Both the position numbers and the translations under genes were made by a program. The notes beneath the pieces are model-generated. The model made no database searches, had not been told where the DNA came from, and saw only the letters and a program-made list of their open reading frames with translations. 64,000 nucleotides of DNA from Streptomyces sp. TLI_053. GTDB taxonomy: Bacteria > Actinomycetota > Actinomycetes > Streptomycetales > Streptomycetaceae. Location of the stretch: the NCBI RefSeq assembly GCF_900105395.1, contig NZ_LT629775.1:8025501-8089500 (forward strand), read 5' to 3'. This document shows, piece after piece, positions 38,306 to 48,278 of this stretch. Within the stretch, counting starts at the first letter, position 1, and the number at the start of each line of letters is the position of its first letter.

Positions 38306-38548
38306 ATGGCACTACGGTTCGTTGCGAAGGACGAGAAATCGGGGGATCACGGCTCTCCCACTGTGTGGGTCGACCCGGAGACCAGGGACTTCGTCATCCA
38401 GGGTTGGAAGATCGACGAGGCAACGACGGCGGATTGCTTGGCCGACGGCCCGATCCCGGACCATGAGACCGTGGTCCGCCTCCCTGCTCGCATGGCCATG
38501 GCACTCAGGGAGGCGTTGGATGTCGCAGAGCTTGAACAGCTTCGCTGA
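38306..38548 (+). CDS. Small protein upstream of DUF6879 (80 aa)
   Basis: ATG 38306 with an ideal AGGAGG. MALRFVAKDEKSGDHGSPTV, WVDPETRDFVIQGWKIDEAT and IPDHETVVRLPARMAMALRE are typical of the short proteins preceding DUF6879 genes in Streptomyces. Soluble, no known biochemical function. It overlaps the next gene by 29 bases, so the two are co-translated. Third-position G/C is weaker here than elsewhere in the window. Confidence 0.82.
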   Translation: MALRFVAKDEKSGDHGSPTVWVDPETRDFVIQGWKIDEATTADCLADGPIPDHETVVRLPARMAMALREALDVAELEQLR

Positions 38549-39050
38549 CCTGTTGAGATCGGCGCGGAAGTCGGCAGTTCACCTCGAACTGCGCGATGTC
38601 TACGCGATCGACAACGAGGACGAAGGCTTCCGGGCATGGAGGTCCGGTCTCCGACTCGACCCGGCTGACCGCGTGTCGTGGTGGCGGCCGTGGCTCGACC
38701 TCGTCCAGGAGGTGACTGCCAATGGTGTCCGTGTGAAGAGAGCCAGGATCGTCTCGGAGCCAGCCAGCGAGTACATCCGTTACGAGCACTCGTTCACGTT
38801 CACCAATGTGGCCGGCGGCGAAGAGGTGAGGTGGCTTCCCCGTCGCGCGGCCTCCGATCTTCTGCTCCCCGTCAATGACTACTGGCTGTTCGACGGCAGC
38901 GTCGTCCAGTTCAACATCTTCGACGGTGACGGCCGATGGGTGCACACGGATCAGAGCGACGATCCCGCGCTGGCCCGGAGCTGTGCCGCGGCTTTCGATG
39001 CCGTGTGGGAGCGGGCTGTCCCTCACGAGGCTTTCAGCTTCGCCGAGTAG
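38520..39050 (+). CDS. DUF6879 family protein
   Basis: 176 residues from ATG 38520. Family hallmarks: SFADLLRSARKSAVHLELRD, RVSWWRPWLDLVQEVTANGV, RIVSEPASEYIRYEHSFTFT, VRWLPRRAASDLLLPVNDYW and LFDGSVVQFNIFDGDGRW. DUF6879 proteins are found beside XRE-DUF5753 regulators and probably work with them in a developmental or stress regulatory module. Middle gene of the 38306-39919 trio. Confidence 0.9.
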   Translation: MSQSLNSFADLLRSARKSAVHLELRDVYAIDNEDEGFRAWRSGLRLDPADRVSWWRPWLDLVQEVTANGVRVKRARIVSEPASEYIRYEHSFTFTNVAGGEEVRWLPRRAASDLLLPVNDYWLFDGSVVQFNIFDGDGRWVHTDQSDDPALARSCAAAFDAVWERAVPHEAFSFAE

Positions 39051-39070
39051 TCGCGGCGGCCGACCGGTTC

Positions 39071-39919
39071 ATGTCCTTCTCTCCTCTCTCCAGTGCCCAG
39101 GCGGCACGGAAGGCGCTCGCCGATCAGCTCGACCGGATCCGGCGGGACGCCGGGCTTTCAGGGCTTGAACTGGCCGTGCGGTGTGGCTGGCACAAGTCCA
39201 AGTCGTCCCGCATCGCCCGCGGTCTGACAGTCCCTTCCGACAGTGACATCCGTGCCTGGTGCACGGCCTGCGGTGCTTCGGAGAAGGCAGCGGATCTGAT
39301 CGCGGCGTCACGCACCGCCGAGTCGATGTACACGCAGTGGCGGGACATCCACCGTGACGGCATGAGGCGGGTGCATCAGAAGACGCTTCCGCTCTATCAG
39401 CGGACACGGAAGTTCAAGGTGTACGCCTCCAACGTCATGCCGGGGATGACGCAGACCGCCCCGTACGCCTCCGGGCTTCTCCGCTCGATCACGTCCTTCC
39501 AGGGGACTCCGGACGACGTGGAGGACGCCGTCGAGGCCCGGCTGGCGCGATCCCGTGTACTGCACGACGCCGGTCGCCAGTTCGCCTTGATCCTGGAGGA
39601 GGCCGTGCTCTACTACGGCGTCTGCGGCGACGGAGCACTCGCTGGTCAACTCGACCATCTGCTCGGGATCTCCTCCCTGTCGAACGTCTCCGTCGGGGTC
39701 ATCCCGTGCCGGGCTCGCCGGACCGTCTGGCCGCTCGAAGCGTTCTACGTATTCGACGAGAGCCTCGTGGCAGTCGAGACACTGACGGCGGAGATCAACA
39801 TCACGGCTCCCGGCGAGATCGGTACCTACCTCCGCGCCTTCGCCGAACTGGCCAGGATCGCCGTTCACGGGGCCGAGGCCCGGAGCCGGATCGCCAAGGC
39901 CCGCAGCGCTCTCGGGTGA
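39071..39919 (+). CDS. XRE-family regulator with DUF5753 domain (second in window)
   Basis: 282 residues from ATG 39071. HTH about residues 14-70 (LADQLDRIRRDAGLSGLELA, GWHKSKSSRIARGLTVPSDS); DUF5753 with FKVYASNVMPGMTQTAPYAS, ARLARSRVLHDAGRQFALIL, EEAVLYYGVCGD and VGVIPCRARRTVWPLEAFYV. It closes the trio with the 80-aa and DUF6879 genes. The RiPP-like pair starts 100 bases downstream on the same strand, so it may regulate that pair. Confidence 0.92.
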   Translation: MSFSPLSSAQAARKALADQLDRIRRDAGLSGLELAVRCGWHKSKSSRIARGLTVPSDSDIRAWCTACGASEKAADLIAASRTAESMYTQWRDIHRDGMRRVHQKTLPLYQRTRKFKVYASNVMPGMTQTAPYASGLLRSITSFQGTPDDVEDAVEARLARSRVLHDAGRQFALILEEAVLYYGVCGDGALAGQLDHLLGISSLSNVSVGVIPCRARRTVWPLEAFYVFDESLVAVETLTAEINITAPGEIGTYLRAFAELARIAVHGAEARSRIAKARSALG

Positions 39920-40018: not shown

Positions 40019-40207
40019 GTGGCGGGACAACATGACGGAGGCACAGTGGGCAAGGCGATGTTCGGCGGCAAGCACGGCGGTGGCACCGGTCCCGGTGACG
40101 GCGGCAAGCAGCAGGACGACAGCAACAAGGGCTCCGGCCACGGCGGTGGCGGATCGGACGAGGGCGGCAACACCTCCGACGGCTCGGGCCCGGCGGGCGG
40201 CAAGTGA
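40019..40207 (+). CDS. Gly/Asp-rich small peptide, candidate RiPP precursor
   Basis: 62 residues from GTG 40019 (GGAGG 8 bases upstream). A short leader-like start (MAGQHDGGTVGKAMFGGKHG) is followed by a flexible Gly/Ser/Asp/Asn region with GDGG, QQDDSN, SDEGG and TSDGSG and a Gly-Gly-Lys end. Asp followed by Gly, Ser or Asn is the kind of site where PIMT-type enzymes make isoaspartate or aspartimide. Its stop overlaps the methyltransferase start (GTGA), strongly coupling the pair. No Cys, so it is not a lanthipeptide-type core. Confidence 0.72.
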   Translation: MAGQHDGGTVGKAMFGGKHGGGTGPGDGGKQQDDSNKGSGHGGGGSDEGGNTSDGSGPAGGK

Positions 40208-41382
40208 CCGGCGGGACGCGCCAGGAGGCGGGCCCCCAGGGGCTCGCCTCCGCGCTGGTGGCCGGCGGTGCGCTCACCCCGGACTGGCTGCCCTCGTTCA
40301 GGGCCGTGCCCCGCGAGCTGTTCGTCCCGGACCGCATCTGGCCCGGCATCGCGGACGGCACCCGGCAGAGCCCCGTCGTGGACCGGTCGCAGGACCCCGG
40401 GGCGTGGCGCGCGGCGGTCTACTCGGACATCCCGCTGACGACCCAGTGGGACGACGGAGAGCACGAGGGCGACGGTCTCGGTACCACCCCGAGTTCGTCG
40501 AACTCGTTGCCCGCCATGGTGTTCTCGATGCTCCAGGACCTGGCGGTCCGTCCTGGGGACAGGGTGCTCGAAATCGGGTCCGGAACCGGGTGGAACGCGG
40601 GCCTGCTGGCCCACCGGCTCGGCGGCACCAACGTGGTGAGCGTCGAGTACGACCCGGAGGTGGCGCGCGGGGCGCGGGACAACCTGGGCCGGGCCGGGCT
40701 GGATCCGATCACGGTCGAGGGGGACGGCCGGGCGGGCTTCGGGCCGGGCGCTCCGTACGACCGGATCATTGCCACCTGCTCCGTGCTGGAGATCCCTCCG
40801 GCCTGGCTGGAGCAGACGGCTCCGGGCGGGCTGATCGTCGCCCCGTTCGGCACCGAGTACGGCGGCGAGCACATCGTCCGCCTGACCGTCGACGACGGCG
40901 GCACGAGTGCGAGCGGGCGGTTCACCCGAAGCTCGGCGTTCATGAGGCTGCGGCAGCAGCGCACCGACCGCCCTCTGGTCGAGGCCTACCTCCACGGGAA
41001 GCCCTGGCCGGCCGACGGCGAGAAGAGCACCACGACACTGTCGCCGAGGGACACGGGCGGATGGCTGGACCAGTTCGTCATCGGGCTGGGCGTGCCCGGC
41101 ACGTTCTGGCGGGCCGAACGTTACGACGACGGCTCGTACACGCTGTGGCTGTACAGCAGGGACACCCTTTCGTGGGCCACTGCGGACCACGAGCCCGACC
41201 GCAGCGAGTACGAGGTGGTCCAGTCCGGCCCCCGCAACCTCTGGGAGGAGGTGACGGCTGTGTACCGGTGGTGGTCCTCGCAGGGCCACCCGGGCCACGA
41301 GCGGTTCGGCCTCACCGTCACCCCGGAGGGCCACACCGCCTGGCTGGACTCCCCGGGCAACCCGGTGCCCCTTCGGCGCTGA
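40204..41382 (+). CDS. PIMT-like O-methyltransferase (RiPP-modifying candidate)
   Basis: 392 residues. The N-terminal 215 residues are L-isoaspartyl-methyltransferase-like: FRAVPRELFVPDRIW, SSSNSLPAMVFSMLQDLAVR, SAM motif I VLEIGSGTGWNAGLLAHRLG (about residue 122), VVSVEYDPEVARGARDNLGR and FGPGAPYDRIIATCSV. A 175-residue C-terminal extension (TGGWLDQFVIGLGVPGTFWR, YTLWLYSRDTLSWA) is absent from housekeeping PIMTs but usual in RiPP-associated ones. It probably methylates Asp carboxylates of the 62-aa peptide, leading to aspartimide. Confidence 0.82.
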   Translation: MTGGTRQEAGPQGLASALVAGGALTPDWLPSFRAVPRELFVPDRIWPGIADGTRQSPVVDRSQDPGAWRAAVYSDIPLTTQWDDGEHEGDGLGTTPSSSNSLPAMVFSMLQDLAVRPGDRVLEIGSGTGWNAGLLAHRLGGTNVVSVEYDPEVARGARDNLGRAGLDPITVEGDGRAGFGPGAPYDRIIATCSVLEIPPAWLEQTAPGGLIVAPFGTEYGGEHIVRLTVDDGGTSASGRFTRSSAFMRLRQQRTDRPLVEAYLHGKPWPADGEKSTTTLSPRDTGGWLDQFVIGLGVPGTFWRAERYDDGSYTLWLYSRDTLSWATADHEPDRSEYEVVQSGPRNLWEEVTAVYRWWSSQGHPGHERFGLTVTPEGHTAWLDSPGNPVPLRR

Positions 41383-41471: not shown

Positions 41472-42122
41472 ATGCTCGGGCACCTCATCACACACGACGA
41501 CGACCTGAGAATGGTCCCCACCGATCATCCGGAGTTGACCGCCGCGGTCGTTCGACTCCACGAAGAACTTCGGAGCCTGCCCGACGGAGCGAACCCCGGC
41601 CGCAGGCGCCTCCTGGCCAGATGGATCGGCATCGGCCGGATGTGCCTGGGGCACCACGGCGAGGCCCGCACCTTCCTCCAGCAGGCGCTGGACCTGGCGG
41701 CAACCCTCGGCAACACTCAGGCCGTCGTCGCCACCGGGCTCAACCTGGCGGACGCACACCGCTACGCCGGTGACGTGCATGGAGCGGACGCCCTCTACCG
41801 CACCGCCCTGGGCACTGCGCGGAGCCAGTGCCCGGGACTCGTCGACTTCGCCCTCCAGCACACCGGCAAGCACCTCATGGAACGCGGCGACCTCGCCGCC
41901 GCCCGGACCCATCTGCAGGAGGCCCTGCGGCTGCGGATCGCCAAGGGGGACACCGAACTGGTCGGGTCCACCCAGGAGGCACTCGACCGGGTCGAGCTGT
42001 TGCTCGACCGGGCCGCGCACACGGTCACCAGCCTCTCACCGGACCCTTTCCCGCCGGGGCGCCCGGCTGAGCCGGGCGCCCCGTGTCGACCCTCGATCCC
42101 CGGCCCCGGCGGCGGTCGGTGA
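41472..42122 (+). CDS. Tetratricopeptide repeat protein
   Basis: 216 residues, ATG 41472 with GGAGGG. Helical repeats of TPR type: WIGIGRMCLGHHGEARTFLQ, QALDLAATLGNTQAVVATGL, LADAHRYAGDVHGADALYRT, HTGKHLMERGDLAAARTHLQ, EALRLRIAKGD. This looks like a stand-alone four-repeat TPR adaptor, with an unstructured Pro-rich tail of about 35 residues. It lies 89 bases after the PIMT-like gene on the same strand and 32 bases before a kinase-like gene; no partner is proven. Confidence 0.82.
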   Translation: MLGHLITHDDDLRMVPTDHPELTAAVVRLHEELRSLPDGANPGRRRLLARWIGIGRMCLGHHGEARTFLQQALDLAATLGNTQAVVATGLNLADAHRYAGDVHGADALYRTALGTARSQCPGLVDFALQHTGKHLMERGDLAAARTHLQEALRLRIAKGDTELVGSTQEALDRVELLLDRAAHTVTSLSPDPFPPGRPAEPGAPCRPSIPGPGGGR

Positions 42123-43969: not shown

Positions 43970-44051
43970 CGGTTCACCTCCGGGGACGGTCCCCGCACCG
44001 TAGCGTGTGGGCTGCGTGCGGGGCATCTGGATTCGTGGGGAGGACCGGGTG

Positions 44052-47000
44052 GTGGGGGACGAGGTCGAGGGGCTGGTCGGCCGCGGGCGGCGGCTGCTGG
44101 ACGAGCACGACGCCGCGGCCGATCCGCGCCGGGCCGCGATGGCGCTGTCCGGCGCGCTGACGGCGTTCACGGCGGCGCGCACGCTGCTGGAGGACGCGGG
44201 GCCGGCCGCGCCGGGCGGGGCGCTCGCGGAGGTGCGGTGCCTGCTCGGGCTGACGCTCGCCGTCCGCTACTGGAACGGTGTCGAGCGGCCGGAGTTCGCC
44301 GAGGACGAGGACGTCCGCGCCGCCGTGTGGGCGGAACGTGCCGACGCCGCAGGGCTGTTGACGCTCGCCCTGGCCGTCTTCGACCCGGCCGCGCCGGAGC
44401 GGGCGGTGGCCGCGGGGAAGCTCGGGCTGCTGCTGTACGCGCGCTCCGGGGACGGCGAGGAGGACGAGCGGGCCCGCCCGGAGGACCTCGACCGGGCGGT
44501 GGAGTCGCTGCGCCTCGCCTGCCCCGTACCGGTGCCGCTCGGACCCTGGCGACTGCTCGGCCCCGTCGGACCGGAGCACCTGCGGGACGCGCCGCACCCG
44601 TTCGACGCGCCGGACCCGTTCGACGCGCCGCACCCGTTCGACGCGCCGGACCCGTACGACGAGCAGGACCCCGGCCTCCTGCTGGCGCTCGGCTGCGCCC
44701 TCGCCGACCGCCACGACCGCGACGGCGCCCCCGCCGACCGCGCCGCGGCCGACGCCGTCCTGACCGGCCTGCTGGACCGGCTCCGCCCGCAGCCGTGGCA
44801 CGAACCGGGCACCGCCCCGCCGCGCCCCCACCCGGAGGCCGATCCGGGACCGGCCGAACTCGCCGAACAGGTCGAACTGCTCGCCCGCGAACGCCTCGTC
44901 CGGCTGCTGCTCGGCCCGGAGGAGGACGGCGGCGGGGACCTCGGGACGGTCGACCGCGCCCTCGCCCAGCTGGAGACGATCGCCGCCACCACCGCGCCCG
45001 ACGCGCCCGCCCGGCTGTGGGCCGGCCTGGTCCTGGTGGACCAGTACGTCGCCCGCGGCGGCGGCACCGCCCGCCCCGAGGACGCCGCCCACCGCCTCGC
45101 CCGGCTGCGCGACCTGCGCCGGCTGCTCCCGCCGGGGCACCCGGACGGCGGCACCGTGCGCTGGGTGCTCGGCAGCACGCTCGGCGGCCTCGCCCGGCTC
45201 GACCGCTACCTGCTGACCGCCGAGGCCCGGGAGGCGGTCGAGGTGCTGCGCGAGGGCCTCGACGGGATGGCCGGGGACGACCCGGTGCGGCCCGCCTCGC
45301 ACGCGGTGCTCGGCACCATGGTCAACGCGCTGTGCGAGCAGGAACCGGAGTCCTACCACCTGGAGGAGGCGCTGCACCACCTCGAACGCGCCGTCCGCAC
45401 CATGGCGGAGGAGGACCACGGCGTCCGCCGCAGCGACGTCCTCCAGCAGCTCGCCCACGCCTCCATCGCCCGGGACGAGTTCTCCACCGACCGGGCCGCG
45501 CTGGACCGGGTGATCGGCCTGCTCGACGACGCCCGGGCCCGGCCCTCCGGCACCCTGTGGTCGGAGCAGCACCTGGACGGCTCGCTGGCGGCCGTGATGA
45601 GCAAACGGTTCGCGTTCACCAACGCCGCCGCCGACCTGGACGCGGCGATCCGGCACGAACGGGCCGCGTTCCGCCGGGCCGCGCCGGACGACGTCAACCG
45701 CGTCGTCCACCTCGAGAACCTCTCCGTCAGCCTCTACCGGCGCTACCTCCTCGGCGGCGACCACCAGGACCTCGAGGCCTCCCGCCGCTACACCGACGAA
45801 GTGGTGGCCTTCCTCGCCGGCAGCGACCACCCGGGCGTCGGGCGGCTGCTCGGCGCACAGCGTCCGATGCTCGAACGGACCCGGCTGATGCTGGAGTTCC
45901 AGGCCGCCCTGCTGGTCCGGGACGTCGAGGCGATGGGGCGGGTGGTGGCCGCGCTGGAACCGCTGGTCGCGGCGGTTCCGGAGGACGACCCGCTCCGGCT
46001 GCTGGCCCGCGGCGACCTCGGCGCGGTGATGTTCATGCACGCGGTGCACACGGGGTCGGACCGGCTGCCGGAAGCGCTCGGACTGATGGCGGAGGCGGCG
46101 AACGGGACGCCGCCCGGGCACCTGTACAAGGCCGTGCTGACGATGCGGGCCGCCGGAGCGCTCGTCATGATCGCCGTGCAGCGGCCGTTCAACGAGCACC
46201 GGGCCGAGGCCGCGCTCCGCCTTCTCGACGCCTTCCTCGCCGAGACCGACCCGACCGGGCTGGAGGGCTCCCGGGCCCTGCTGCTGCGGGCGGTCCTGCT
46301 GCTGGAGCGCTACCGCCACGCGCGCCGGCCCGCCGACGCGGCCGGGGCGCTGGCCGCCGCCGGGGCCGTGCGCGAGCGGATGCGGCTCGGGACGCCGACC
46401 CTGCTGCTGGCCAAGGTGAGCGGGATCGTCGCGGCCGTCCACCGGGCCCGGCTCGGGGCGGAGGACCGCCGGCTCGGCCGCGAGCTCGGGCTGGCCGGGC
46501 TGCGCGAGCTCGCCGCCGCCACCCTGATCCAGGCGTCGGCCGAACCGGCCCTGGTGCTGGCCCGGGCCGCCGCCTTCGAGGCGCTGACCGTCGCCGGGTG
46601 GTGCGTCGAGGACCTGGAGCAGGAGGCGGGGCAGGCCGCCGCCGGTGCGTCCGTCCCCGGTGACGAGCCCTTCCTGCGGACCGCCGTCGAAGTGCTGGAG
46701 CTCGGCCGCGGCCTGGTGCTGCAAGCCTCCACCGCCACCACCGACGTCCCCGACCTGCTGCGGACCGCCGGGCACCACGACCTCGCCGACGCCTGGCTGG
46801 GCCCCGGCCCGGGCACGGGCGCGGAGGACGGCGCAGCGGGCGGTACAGCGGGCGGTACAGCGAACGGCGCGGAGGACCCCTACGCCTTCGACGCGCTGCT
46901 CGACCTGCCCGGCACCCTGCTCGCGAACCTCCCCGGCGGCGCCGACATCCCGATGCCCGACGACCTGCGCCGCCGCGCGCTCACCGCCCTCGCCGCCGCC

Positions 47001-48278
47001 CCGGCCGGCCCGGCGCTGGTGTCCGTGCCCCCGGTCGAGGAGATCGCCCGCAGCCTGCGCGCGGCCGACGCGGACGCCCTGGTCTACCTGCTGCCGCCCG
47101 CCGACGGACGCAGCGGCCAGGCCCTGCTGGTCACCGCAGGCGAGGAGGGCGGCGCCGTCGACCGGCTGCCGCTCACCCTGGTCAGCACCGCCGCGCTCGA
47201 CCTGCTGCACGCCTACCGGCGGGCGCACCGCGAACGCCAGGCCACCCTGGACGCCCTGCCGTCCCGTCACCCGGAGCGGATCGCCGCCCGGCGGCGCTGG
47301 CAGGGCACCCTCCGCGAACTCTGCGACTGGGCCGGCACCGCCGTGATGCGCCCGCTGCTGCGCCACCCGGCCCTGCGGTCGGCCGCCGCCCGGCGCGCGC
47401 CCGGTGCGCCGCCCCGGCTGGTGCTGGTGCCGTACGGCGCCCTGGGCGGCGTGCCCTGGCACGCGGGGCTGCTCAGCAGCGGGCTGCGCGACGGCGGCCG
47501 GCCGGTGCGGGTCGTGGAACGGGCGGTGGTCTCCTACGCCGCCTCCGCCCGGCAGTTCTGCGAGGTGGTCCGGCGGCCCCGGCTGCCGCTCGCCGAACGG
47601 CCGGTGGTCGTCGGCGACCCCACCCGGGACCTGATGTTCGCCGAGGTCGAGGCCGAGTACCTGCACGCCGACCACTACCCGCACGGCACCCTGCTCGGTT
47701 ACGTCGAGGACGCCGAGGGGGCGGGCACCCCGGCCGAGGTGCTGGCCGCGCTTCCGGCGCCCGGACGGGCCGGGGCGTCCGTGCTCCATCTGGCCTGCCA
47801 CGCGCTGCCGTCCGGGCGCTCGCCGCTCGATGCCTGCCTCGCCCTCGCCCCCGACCCGGGCGCCGGGGACCGGCACGGCCGACTGCCGGTCGGCGACATC
47901 CTGCGCCAGGCGCTGGGCCGCCCGCCCGGCTCCCCGGGCGGACTGGTCGTGCTGGACGCCTGCGTCAGCGACCACACCGGCGAGGACCTCGACGAGGCGC
48001 TGACCCTCTCCAGCGCCTTCCTCGCCGCCGGGGCGACGGGCGCGATCGGCTCGCGCTGGGAGGTTTCCGACGAGATGGTCTGCGTGCTGATGTACGTCCT
48101 GCACGGCCGCCTCGCCGCCGGGGACCCGCCCGCCGAGGCCCTGCGCCGCGCCCAGCTGTGGGCCCTCGACCCCGACCGCCGCCTGCCCCCGCAGGCCCCG
48201 CCCGAACTCCACTCGCTGGCCGGCCGCGCCCCGGACGCCCTGGAGGTGTGGGCGGCCTTCTCCTACCAGGGCTACTGA
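44052..48278 (+). CDS. Large TPR-like/CHAT-domain protease-like protein
   Basis: About 1408 residues (GTG 44052 chosen for spacing from GGGGAGG; GTG 44049 possible). Residues 1-960 are helical, TPR-like repeats (AREAVEVLREGLDGMAGDDP, YHLEEALHHLERAVRTMAEE), with a DAPHPFDAPDPF repeat near 180-205. The C-terminal CHAT domain (about 1000-1408) has the caspase-like dyad: His in VLHLACHALPSG (about 1249) and Cys in LVVLDACVSDHTGED (about 1303), plus FLAAGATGAIGSRWEVSD. CHAT proteins are cysteine peptidases in bacterial conflict and cell-death systems; the target is unknown. Confidence 0.9.
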   Translation: MGDEVEGLVGRGRRLLDEHDAAADPRRAAMALSGALTAFTAARTLLEDAGPAAPGGALAEVRCLLGLTLAVRYWNGVERPEFAEDEDVRAAVWAERADAAGLLTLALAVFDPAAPERAVAAGKLGLLLYARSGDGEEDERARPEDLDRAVESLRLACPVPVPLGPWRLLGPVGPEHLRDAPHPFDAPDPFDAPHPFDAPDPYDEQDPGLLLALGCALADRHDRDGAPADRAAADAVLTGLLDRLRPQPWHEPGTAPPRPHPEADPGPAELAEQVELLARERLVRLLLGPEEDGGGDLGTVDRALAQLETIAATTAPDAPARLWAGLVLVDQYVARGGGTARPEDAAHRLARLRDLRRLLPPGHPDGGTVRWVLGSTLGGLARLDRYLLTAEAREAVEVLREGLDGMAGDDPVRPASHAVLGTMVNALCEQEPESYHLEEALHHLERAVRTMAEEDHGVRRSDVLQQLAHASIARDEFSTDRAALDRVIGLLDDARARPSGTLWSEQHLDGSLAAVMSKRFAFTNAAADLDAAIRHERAAFRRAAPDDVNRVVHLENLSVSLYRRYLLGGDHQDLEASRRYTDEVVAFLAGSDHPGVGRLLGAQRPMLERTRLMLEFQAALLVRDVEAMGRVVAALEPLVAAVPEDDPLRLLARGDLGAVMFMHAVHTGSDRLPEALGLMAEAANGTPPGHLYKAVLTMRAAGALVMIAVQRPFNEHRAEAALRLLDAFLAETDPTGLEGSRALLLRAVLLLERYRHARRPADAAGALAAAGAVRERMRLGTPTLLLAKVSGIVAAVHRARLGAEDRRLGRELGLAGLRELAAATLIQASAEPALVLARAAAFEALTVAGWCVEDLEQEAGQAAAGASVPGDEPFLRTAVEVLELGRGLVLQASTATTDVPDLLRTAGHHDLADAWLGPGPGTGAEDGAAGGTAGGTANGAEDPYAFDALLDLPGTLLANLPGGADIPMPDDLRRRALTALAAAPAGPALVSVPPVEEIARSLRAADADALVYLLPPADGRSGQALLVTAGEEGGAVDRLPLTLVSTAALDLLHAYRRAHRERQATLDALPSRHPERIAARRRWQGTLRELCDWAGTAVMRPLLRHPALRSAAARRAPGAPPRLVLVPYGALGGVPWHAGLLSSGLRDGGRPVRVVERAVVSYAASARQFCEVVRRPRLPLAERPVVVGDPTRDLMFAEVEAEYLHADHYPHGTLLGYVEDAEGAGTPAEVLAALPAPGRAGASVLHLACHALPSGRSPLDACLALAPDPGAGDRHGRLPVGDILRQALGRPPGSPGGLVVLDACVSDHTGEDLDEALTLSSAFLAAGATGAIGSRWEVSDEMVCVLMYVLHGRLAAGDPPAEALRRAQLWALDPDRRLPPQAPPELHSLAGRAPDALEVWAAFSYQGY
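44586..44665 (+). repeat. Tandem repeat encoding DAP[HD]PFDAP
   Basis: Roughly 18-bp units within the CHAT-protein gene encode four DAPHPF/DAPDPF-like motifs. In-frame repeat number changes would lengthen or shorten a Pro/Asp linker between two helical regions. Confidence 0.75.

What the first reader, a model, noticed from the sequence alone, without database searches (positions are those of the whole stretch)
40019..41382. Two-gene RiPP-like locus: Gly/Asp-rich 62-aa peptide coupled to a PIMT-like methyltransferase
A short flexible peptide with Asp-Gly, Asp-Ser and Asp-Glu sites overlaps (GTGA) a 392-residue PIMT homologue that has the extra C-terminal domain typical of RiPP-modifying members. 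Known: imiditides are RiPPs made by just a precursor and such an enzyme, which installs aspartimide. No lanthipeptide or graspetide enzyme is present, so this pair would be a minimal, possibly new, imiditide-type pathway.
Basis: partly seen in the sequence, partly recalled or inferred. Interest (0 to 1): 0.75.

Follow-up and report, generated by a model that had tools for sequence, protein, structure and literature searches.

The report
Two-gene Gly-rich imiditide (pamtide) locus
A soil actinomycete carries a small two-gene cassette, a glycine-rich peptide and the enzyme predicted to turn one of its aspartates into a reactive ring, which belongs to a recently described kind of modified-peptide pathway whose biological purpose is still unknown.

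Summary
The Gly/Asp-rich ORF at 40019-40207 overlaps (GTGA) a 392-aa PIMT-type methyltransferase with the extra C-terminal domain and WxxxGxP motif of RiPP-modifying enzymes. The peptide is a conserved gene. Relatives occur in 52 of 394 Streptomycetaceae genomes sampled, its frame is under purifying selection, and all 20 extra profile hits whose surroundings were read have the methyltransferase directly downstream. The enzymes paired with this peptide form one well-supported clade, nested among the enzymes of other two-gene type I pamtide (imiditide) loci and separate from graspetide and lanthipeptide enzymes. No LanC or graspetide ATP-grasp gene lies in the window. The likely target is the invariant Asp of (S/N)-D-G-x-x-P (D54), with the invariant QDD pair as the alternative. 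Within its class this is a distinct precursor subfamily: Gly 36%, Pro 3%, net charge about -3, against the Pro-rich, often basic precursors described. The 62-aa start is doubtful; relatives point to GTG 40046 (53 aa). This is a new member of a known kind, of moderate interest.

The parts
40019..40207 (+).
   Evidence: conserved family alignment A1; dN/dS 0.41 in frame and above 1 in the other two frames
40046..40207 (+). Alternative, orthologue-aligned start of the precursor (53 aa: MGKAMFGGKHGGG...); GGAGG at 40037-40041
   Evidence: upstream DNA of orthologues compared
40115..40120 (+). Invariant Asp pair D33-D34 of the QQDD motif (second candidate site or recognition element)
40178..40180 (+). 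Codon of D54 in T-S-D-G-S-G-P-A, the predicted site of methylation and aspartimide formation
   Evidence: invariant D-G-x-x-P in alignment A1; same arrangement in Pro-rich type I precursors; by analogy with PMC10787088 and PMC13001092
40204..41382 (+). Peptide L-aspartyl O-methyltransferase (PAMT; PIMT homologue with C-terminal domain), 392 aa, GTG start overlapping the peptide stop
   Evidence: Pfam PF01135 and NCBIfam TIGR04188; AlphaFold model pLDDT 92, best PDB match 1dl5, the PIMT with a C-terminal extension
40576..40590 (+). SAM-binding motif GSGTG (residues 125-129)
   Evidence: invariant glycines in alignment A2
41272..41292 (+). WSSQGHP, the WxxxGxP motif of RiPP-associated PIMTs (residues 357-363)
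   Evidence: motif described in PMC13001092
39071..39919 (+). XRE-type HTH + DUF5753 regulator just upstream (probable cluster regulator)
   Evidence: Pfam; present upstream in 19 of 51 loci compared
38520..39050 (+). DUF6879 protein paired with the XRE-DUF5753 regulator
   Evidence: Pfam PF21806 E 8e-56; present upstream in 19 of 51 loci

Best explanation
This is a type I pamtide (imiditide) locus: a linear, glycine-rich, ribosomally made precursor and its dedicated peptide L-aspartyl O-methyltransferase. The enzyme uses SAM to methylate one conserved aspartate of the unmodified precursor, most likely D54 in the invariant (S/N)-D-G-x-x-P motif. The ester collapses to an aspartimide by attack of the following glycine's backbone nitrogen, and this hydrolyses mainly to isoaspartate. 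Shown here: the conserved gene pair, the enzyme family and domain plan, coevolution as one clade, and invariance of the Asp. Inferred from characterised relatives: methylation, aspartimide, isoaspartate. Translation is probably coupled through the GTGA overlap, and the XRE-DUF5753/DUF6879 pair upstream probably regulates the cassette.
For: The enzyme has a PCMT core plus a C-terminal domain and WxxxGxP, and its model best matches T. maritima PIMT 1dl5, which also has a C-terminal extension. The precursor family has 20 invariant columns, including Q-D-D and S-D-G-x-x-P (the short forms have S or N before the Asp). The profile matches 52 of 394 Streptomycetaceae genomes and 2 of 396 in a phylum-wide sample, both of that family. 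In 20 of 20 extra hits the methyltransferase follows directly. The tree puts the 57 enzymes of this clade on a starred branch (99), next to type I pamtide-like enzymes with PDG/KDG...KHK and PDG...HRK precursors. Purifying selection acts on the peptide frame. Only peptide and enzyme are consistently shared between loci. Two-gene imiditides/type I pamtides from other actinomycetes have been shown to give +14 and -18 Da products (PMC10787088, PMC13001092).
Against: No chemistry is tested. The precursor is Pro-poor and acidic, unlike the average described for the class. Profile comparison with Pro-rich type I precursors is not significant (0.6% probability, 8 columns), so the two precursor groups are tied by their enzymes and gene order, not by detectable precursor homology. 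Two variants (L116, L117) lack the S-D-G-x-x-P core, one (L021) lacks the QQDD part, and four clade members (L014, L025, L056, L063) show no recognisable precursor next to the enzyme.
Confidence: 0.85

Rival explanations
1. Same pathway, but the modified residue is one of the QQDD aspartates (D33 or D34) and the C-terminal S-D-G-x-x-P is the recognition element.
For: Q-D-D is invariant in the aligned family and in the core-less variants L116 and L117. In NmaA and SpaA the C-terminal residues are needed for modification (PMC13001092).
Against: The S. olivoreticuli paralogue L021 keeps an intact enzyme and S-D-G-x-x-P but has lost QQDD. Asp-Gly is a classic aspartimide-prone site (general knowledge), and Pro-rich type I precursors conserve D-G or D-S and lack QDD.
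Confidence: 0.2
2. The enzyme is a general isoaspartyl repair methyltransferase and the upstream Gly-rich ORF is an unrelated or spurious reading frame.
For: The core domain is PCMT.
Against: The peptide is conserved, selected in frame and strictly paired with the enzyme. The enzyme carries the RiPP-type C-terminal domain and is one of several paralogues that differ in number between genomes.
Confidence: 0.03
3. The peptide is a small disordered cellular protein whose Asp/isoAsp switch has an intracellular, perhaps regulatory, role rather than being a precursor of an exported natural product. The chemistry would be the same as in the best explanation.
For: No transporter or protease is consistently linked to the pair; no leader/core boundary is apparent, since conservation runs through most of the peptide; a regulator pair often lies upstream.
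Against: Published imiditide loci are likewise described as precursor plus methyltransferase only, and patchy distribution with altered or missing precursors resembles secondary metabolism.
Confidence: 0.3

Closest known systems
Type I pamtides / imiditides (SpaA-SpaM of Streptomyces sparsogenes, NmaA-NmaM of Nonomuraea maritima)
   Same: Two genes only; PIMT homologue with C-terminal domain and WxxxGxP; short linear precursor with a conserved Asp beside Gly/Pro; no cyclase
   Different: Precursor is Gly-rich (36%), Pro-poor (3%) and net acidic (mean -3.0), with an added invariant QDD motif; the described class averages 17% Gly and 17% Pro and is called strongly positive
Second two-gene type I-like pair in the same genome (L002/L152, 2.54 Mb)
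   Same: Short precursor with PDGxxP just upstream of a homologous enzyme (46% identical)
   Different: Precursor MAWGTDKDGNGKHGGKKDPGTAKPSPDGSRPLPDPKHRKDDDKK is Pro/Lys-rich, without QDD
Graspimiditide (ATP-grasp) PAMTs
   Same: Same enzyme superfamily (best NCBIfam model TIGR04188); DUF5753-type regulators also occur there
   Different: They act on ATP-grasp-cyclised precursors; no ATP-grasp gene here, and the enzyme lies outside that clade
Lanthipeptide PAMTs (OlvSA type, FxLD system TIGR04364)
   Same: PIMT homologue acting on Asp of a RiPP
   Different: No LanC-like gene in the window; TIGR04364 matches at 117.9 bits against a cut-off of 320
Type II pamtides / cysimiditides
   Same: Two-gene architecture
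   Different: Their CxxCxGxG zinc motifs are absent; the window peptide has no cysteine

Membership tests
Type I pamtide / imiditide | Two-gene cluster: precursor plus PAMT, no other RiPP primary enzyme | tested here: met
   LanC and graspetide ATP-grasp hits all lie outside the window
Type I pamtide / imiditide | PIMT homologue with extra C-terminal domain and WxxxGxP motif | tested here: met
   WSSQGHP at residues 357-363; aligned across clades; model
[quoted passage not shown]
   S-D-G-x-x-P and Q-D-D invariant in A1
Type I pamtide / imiditide | Enzyme groups with other PAMTs of two-gene loci | tested here: met
   (quick tree; SpaM and NmaM themselves were not available)
Type I pamtide / imiditide | Precursor rich in Gly, Pro and Asp with basic C-terminus (typical, not strictly defining) | tested here: inconclusive
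   Gly and Asp yes; Pro 3.4% and last-ten-residue charge -0.3, against 20% and +1.5 in other clades
Type I pamtide / imiditide | Asp methylation and aspartimide formation on the unmodified peptide | not testable with these tools
   needs co-expression and mass spectrometry
Type II pamtide / cysimiditide | Two CxxCxGxG zinc motifs flanking the Asp | tested here: not met
   no cysteine in the window peptide
Graspetide with PAMT | Adjacent graspetide ATP-grasp ligase | tested here: not met
   nearest TIGR04187 hit is about 167 kb away and below cut-off
Lanthipeptide with PAMT | Adjacent LanC/LanB-type enzymes | tested here: not met
   nearest LANC_like hit is over 200 kb away
Canonical repair PIMT (Pcm) | Equivalog model score and single-domain architecture | tested here: not met
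   TIGR00080 83.9 bits against a cut-off of 159; NF001453 105.7 against 188; extra C-terminal domain

The most novel reading that the evidence does not exclude
A separate, undescribed imiditide lineage in which an acidic, nearly proline-free glycine-rich peptide is recognised not by the charge rule proposed for imiditides (basic peptide, acidic enzyme loop) but through its invariant QDD motif and a basic strip in the enzyme (FMRLRQQR region; segment 230-270 has mean charge +2.8, against -0.7 in other type I clades). A XRE-DUF5753/DUF6879 regulator pair controls many of the loci.
Probability: 0.3. Interest if true: 0.5.

Novelty: new member of a known kind. Interest (0 to 1): 0.38.

Why it matters
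Imiditides are among the simplest RiPP pathways known, one enzyme acting on one linear peptide, yet their function is unknown and only a few pairs have been tested. This family gives a compact, highly conserved precursor, natural deletion and core variants, and a charge pattern opposite to the published recognition model. How these enzymes choose one Asp among many thereby becomes testable. The recurrent regulator pair offers a handle on when such peptides are made.

Tried and rejected
Precursor homology between Gly-rich and Pro-rich families by profile comparison: only 8 columns, not significant. Charge complementarity by whole C-terminal domain: no clear difference between clades (-4.3 against -5.8); only the 230-270 segment differs, which is a post hoc pick. 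Rfam, sigma-70 promoter and terminator scans of the locus: nothing. Pfam and NCBIfam scans of the peptide: no family. A missing precursor in L014, L025, L056 and L063 was looked for in the three upstream frames and by motif over both strands of each locus; none was found.

Full report
OBSERVATION. The peptide holds 25 Gly, 2 Pro, 6 Asp and 1 Glu in 62 residues, with D27-G, D33-D34-S, D47-E and D54-G. The start is uncertain. GTG 40019 has AAGGAGG eight bases upstream. In close relatives, however, the start is an ATG reading MGK(R/H)GGG after an ACGGAGG box, and this aligns with GTG 40046 of the window, which would make a 53-aa peptide.

IS THE PEPTIDE A GENE? Pfam and NCBIfam know no such peptide. 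Thirty-two named loci encode a relative of the enzyme, and 67 of 70 genomes of the genus set have some match to it. Most close loci carry the same peptide immediately upstream. An alignment of 23 peptides has 20 invariant columns. A profile made from it matches 52 of 394 genomes of the family and 2 of 396 in a phylum-wide sample, both of that family; within its own genome it matches once. In a further 20 loci chosen only by the peptide profile, the methyltransferase follows directly in all 20. Over 26 distinct sequences the pooled Nd/N to Sd/S ratio is 0.41 in frame and 1.29 and 1.69 in the other frames. The peptide is therefore a real, selected gene tied to the enzyme.

ENZYME. It has PCMT (E 4e-29), best NCBIfam model TIGR04188 at 333.7 bits (cut-off 380), and falls well below cut-off for repair-PIMT and FxLD models. 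The AlphaFold model (mean pLDDT 92, pTM 0.90) matches PIMT structures. The best is 1dl5 from T. maritima, the one with a C-terminal extension, which the review of Zhu and Link (PMC13001092) singles out as sharing features with RiPP-associated enzymes. The WxxxGxP motif given there for RiPP-associated PIMTs is present as WSSQGHP and is mostly kept across clades.

PLACE IN THE FAMILY. In a tree of 102 enzymes the 57 members of the Gly-rich clade form one starred branch (99). It groups (support 92) with enzymes whose precursors end PDG/KDGxxPxPxPKHK, then (93) with those whose precursors end PDG...GGHRK or similar; graspetide-linked enzymes and the two lanthipeptide-linked enzymes of this genome fall outside. 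A short form of the precursor (..WWLTMADGNPQDDSDSGNKHGGGGSDEGGNTNDGQGPADGR) forms its own sub-branch. The tree is a quick search without bootstrap, and published SpaM and NmaM sequences could not be included.

OTHER ENZYMES. LanC-like and graspetide ATP-grasp genes exist in this genome but none lies in the window. The other PAMT-type genes of the genome sit near LanC genes (8.89 and 9.77 Mb), next to a graspetide ligase (2.66 Mb), next to a ligase remnant (4.52 Mb), or with a second, Pro/Lys-rich two-gene precursor (2.54 Mb).

SURROUNDINGS. Only the peptide and the enzyme are shared by nearly all loci. A DUF6879 gene and a XRE-HTH/DUF5753 gene precede the pair in the window and occur upstream in 19 of 51 loci compared, against about 0.4% expected from the 9 DUF6879 copies of this genome. 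In this genome 3 of 6 PAMT genes have DUF6879 within 4 kb upstream. The estimate treats loci as independent, which they are not fully, and in some loci the pair is on the opposite strand. A related DUF397/DUF5753 pair has been reported with graspimiditides (PMC13097080); DUF6879 is mentioned in no paper of the library.

MECHANISM. By analogy with tested imiditides (PMC10787088 and PMC13001092), the enzyme should methylate one Asp of the linear peptide, the ester should cyclise to aspartimide and hydrolyse mainly to isoAsp. D54 is favoured: S/N-D-G-x-x-P (L for P in one case) is kept in all 29 sequences tallied, the Pro-rich type I precursors have D-G or D-S in the same region, and one natural variant (L021) has lost QQDD but kept S-D-G-x-x-P beside an intact enzyme. 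QDD is the alternative, since it is equally invariant and survives in L116/L117, which have lost S-D-G-x-x-P.

WHAT DIFFERS. The family's precursors average 36% Gly, 3% Pro and net charge -3.0, against 26%, 20% and +0.3 in 22 precursors of other two-gene clades. Published type I precursors average 17.3% Gly and 16.8% Pro (PMC10787088), and the review calls imiditides strongly positive and recognised by charge (PMC13001092). That rule cannot apply unchanged to an acidic peptide. A more basic 230-270 segment in this enzyme clade is a possible counterpart but was picked after looking.

VERDICT. It is a new member of a known kind, with a distinctive precursor subfamily that may or may not be in published lists. 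Function is unknown for the whole class.

Noticed in passing
window 38520-39919: DUF6879 + XRE-HTH/DUF5753 pair lies upstream of PAMT loci far more often than chance, including two graspetide-type PAMTs of the same genome (2.66 and 4.52 Mb); a likely shared regulator of aspartimide RiPPs.
   Followed up: partly
L021, L051, L014, L116, L117: Natural precursor variants beside intact enzymes: loss of QQDD (L021), loss of the C-terminal core (L051), no recognisable precursor (L014), altered C-terminus ...SGHSDTKGSGTK (L116, L117).
   Followed up: partly
L025, L056, L063: Members of the Gly-rich enzyme clade with DUF5753-type regulator sequence directly upstream and no precursor found; substrate unknown.
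   Followed up: partly
G000:C1:4515599-4518509 (L004/L154): A PAMT beside what looks like a truncated graspetide ATP-grasp (only 37 model positions match) with DUF6879/DUF5753 upstream: probably a decaying graspimiditide cluster.
   Followed up: no
window 44007-48278: 1423-aa protein with a C-terminal CHAT (caspase-like) protease domain (Pfam E 3e-35).
   Followed up: no
window 41472-42122: TPR-repeat protein directly downstream of the methyltransferase; not found as a shared neighbour in the other loci of this family.
   Followed up: partly
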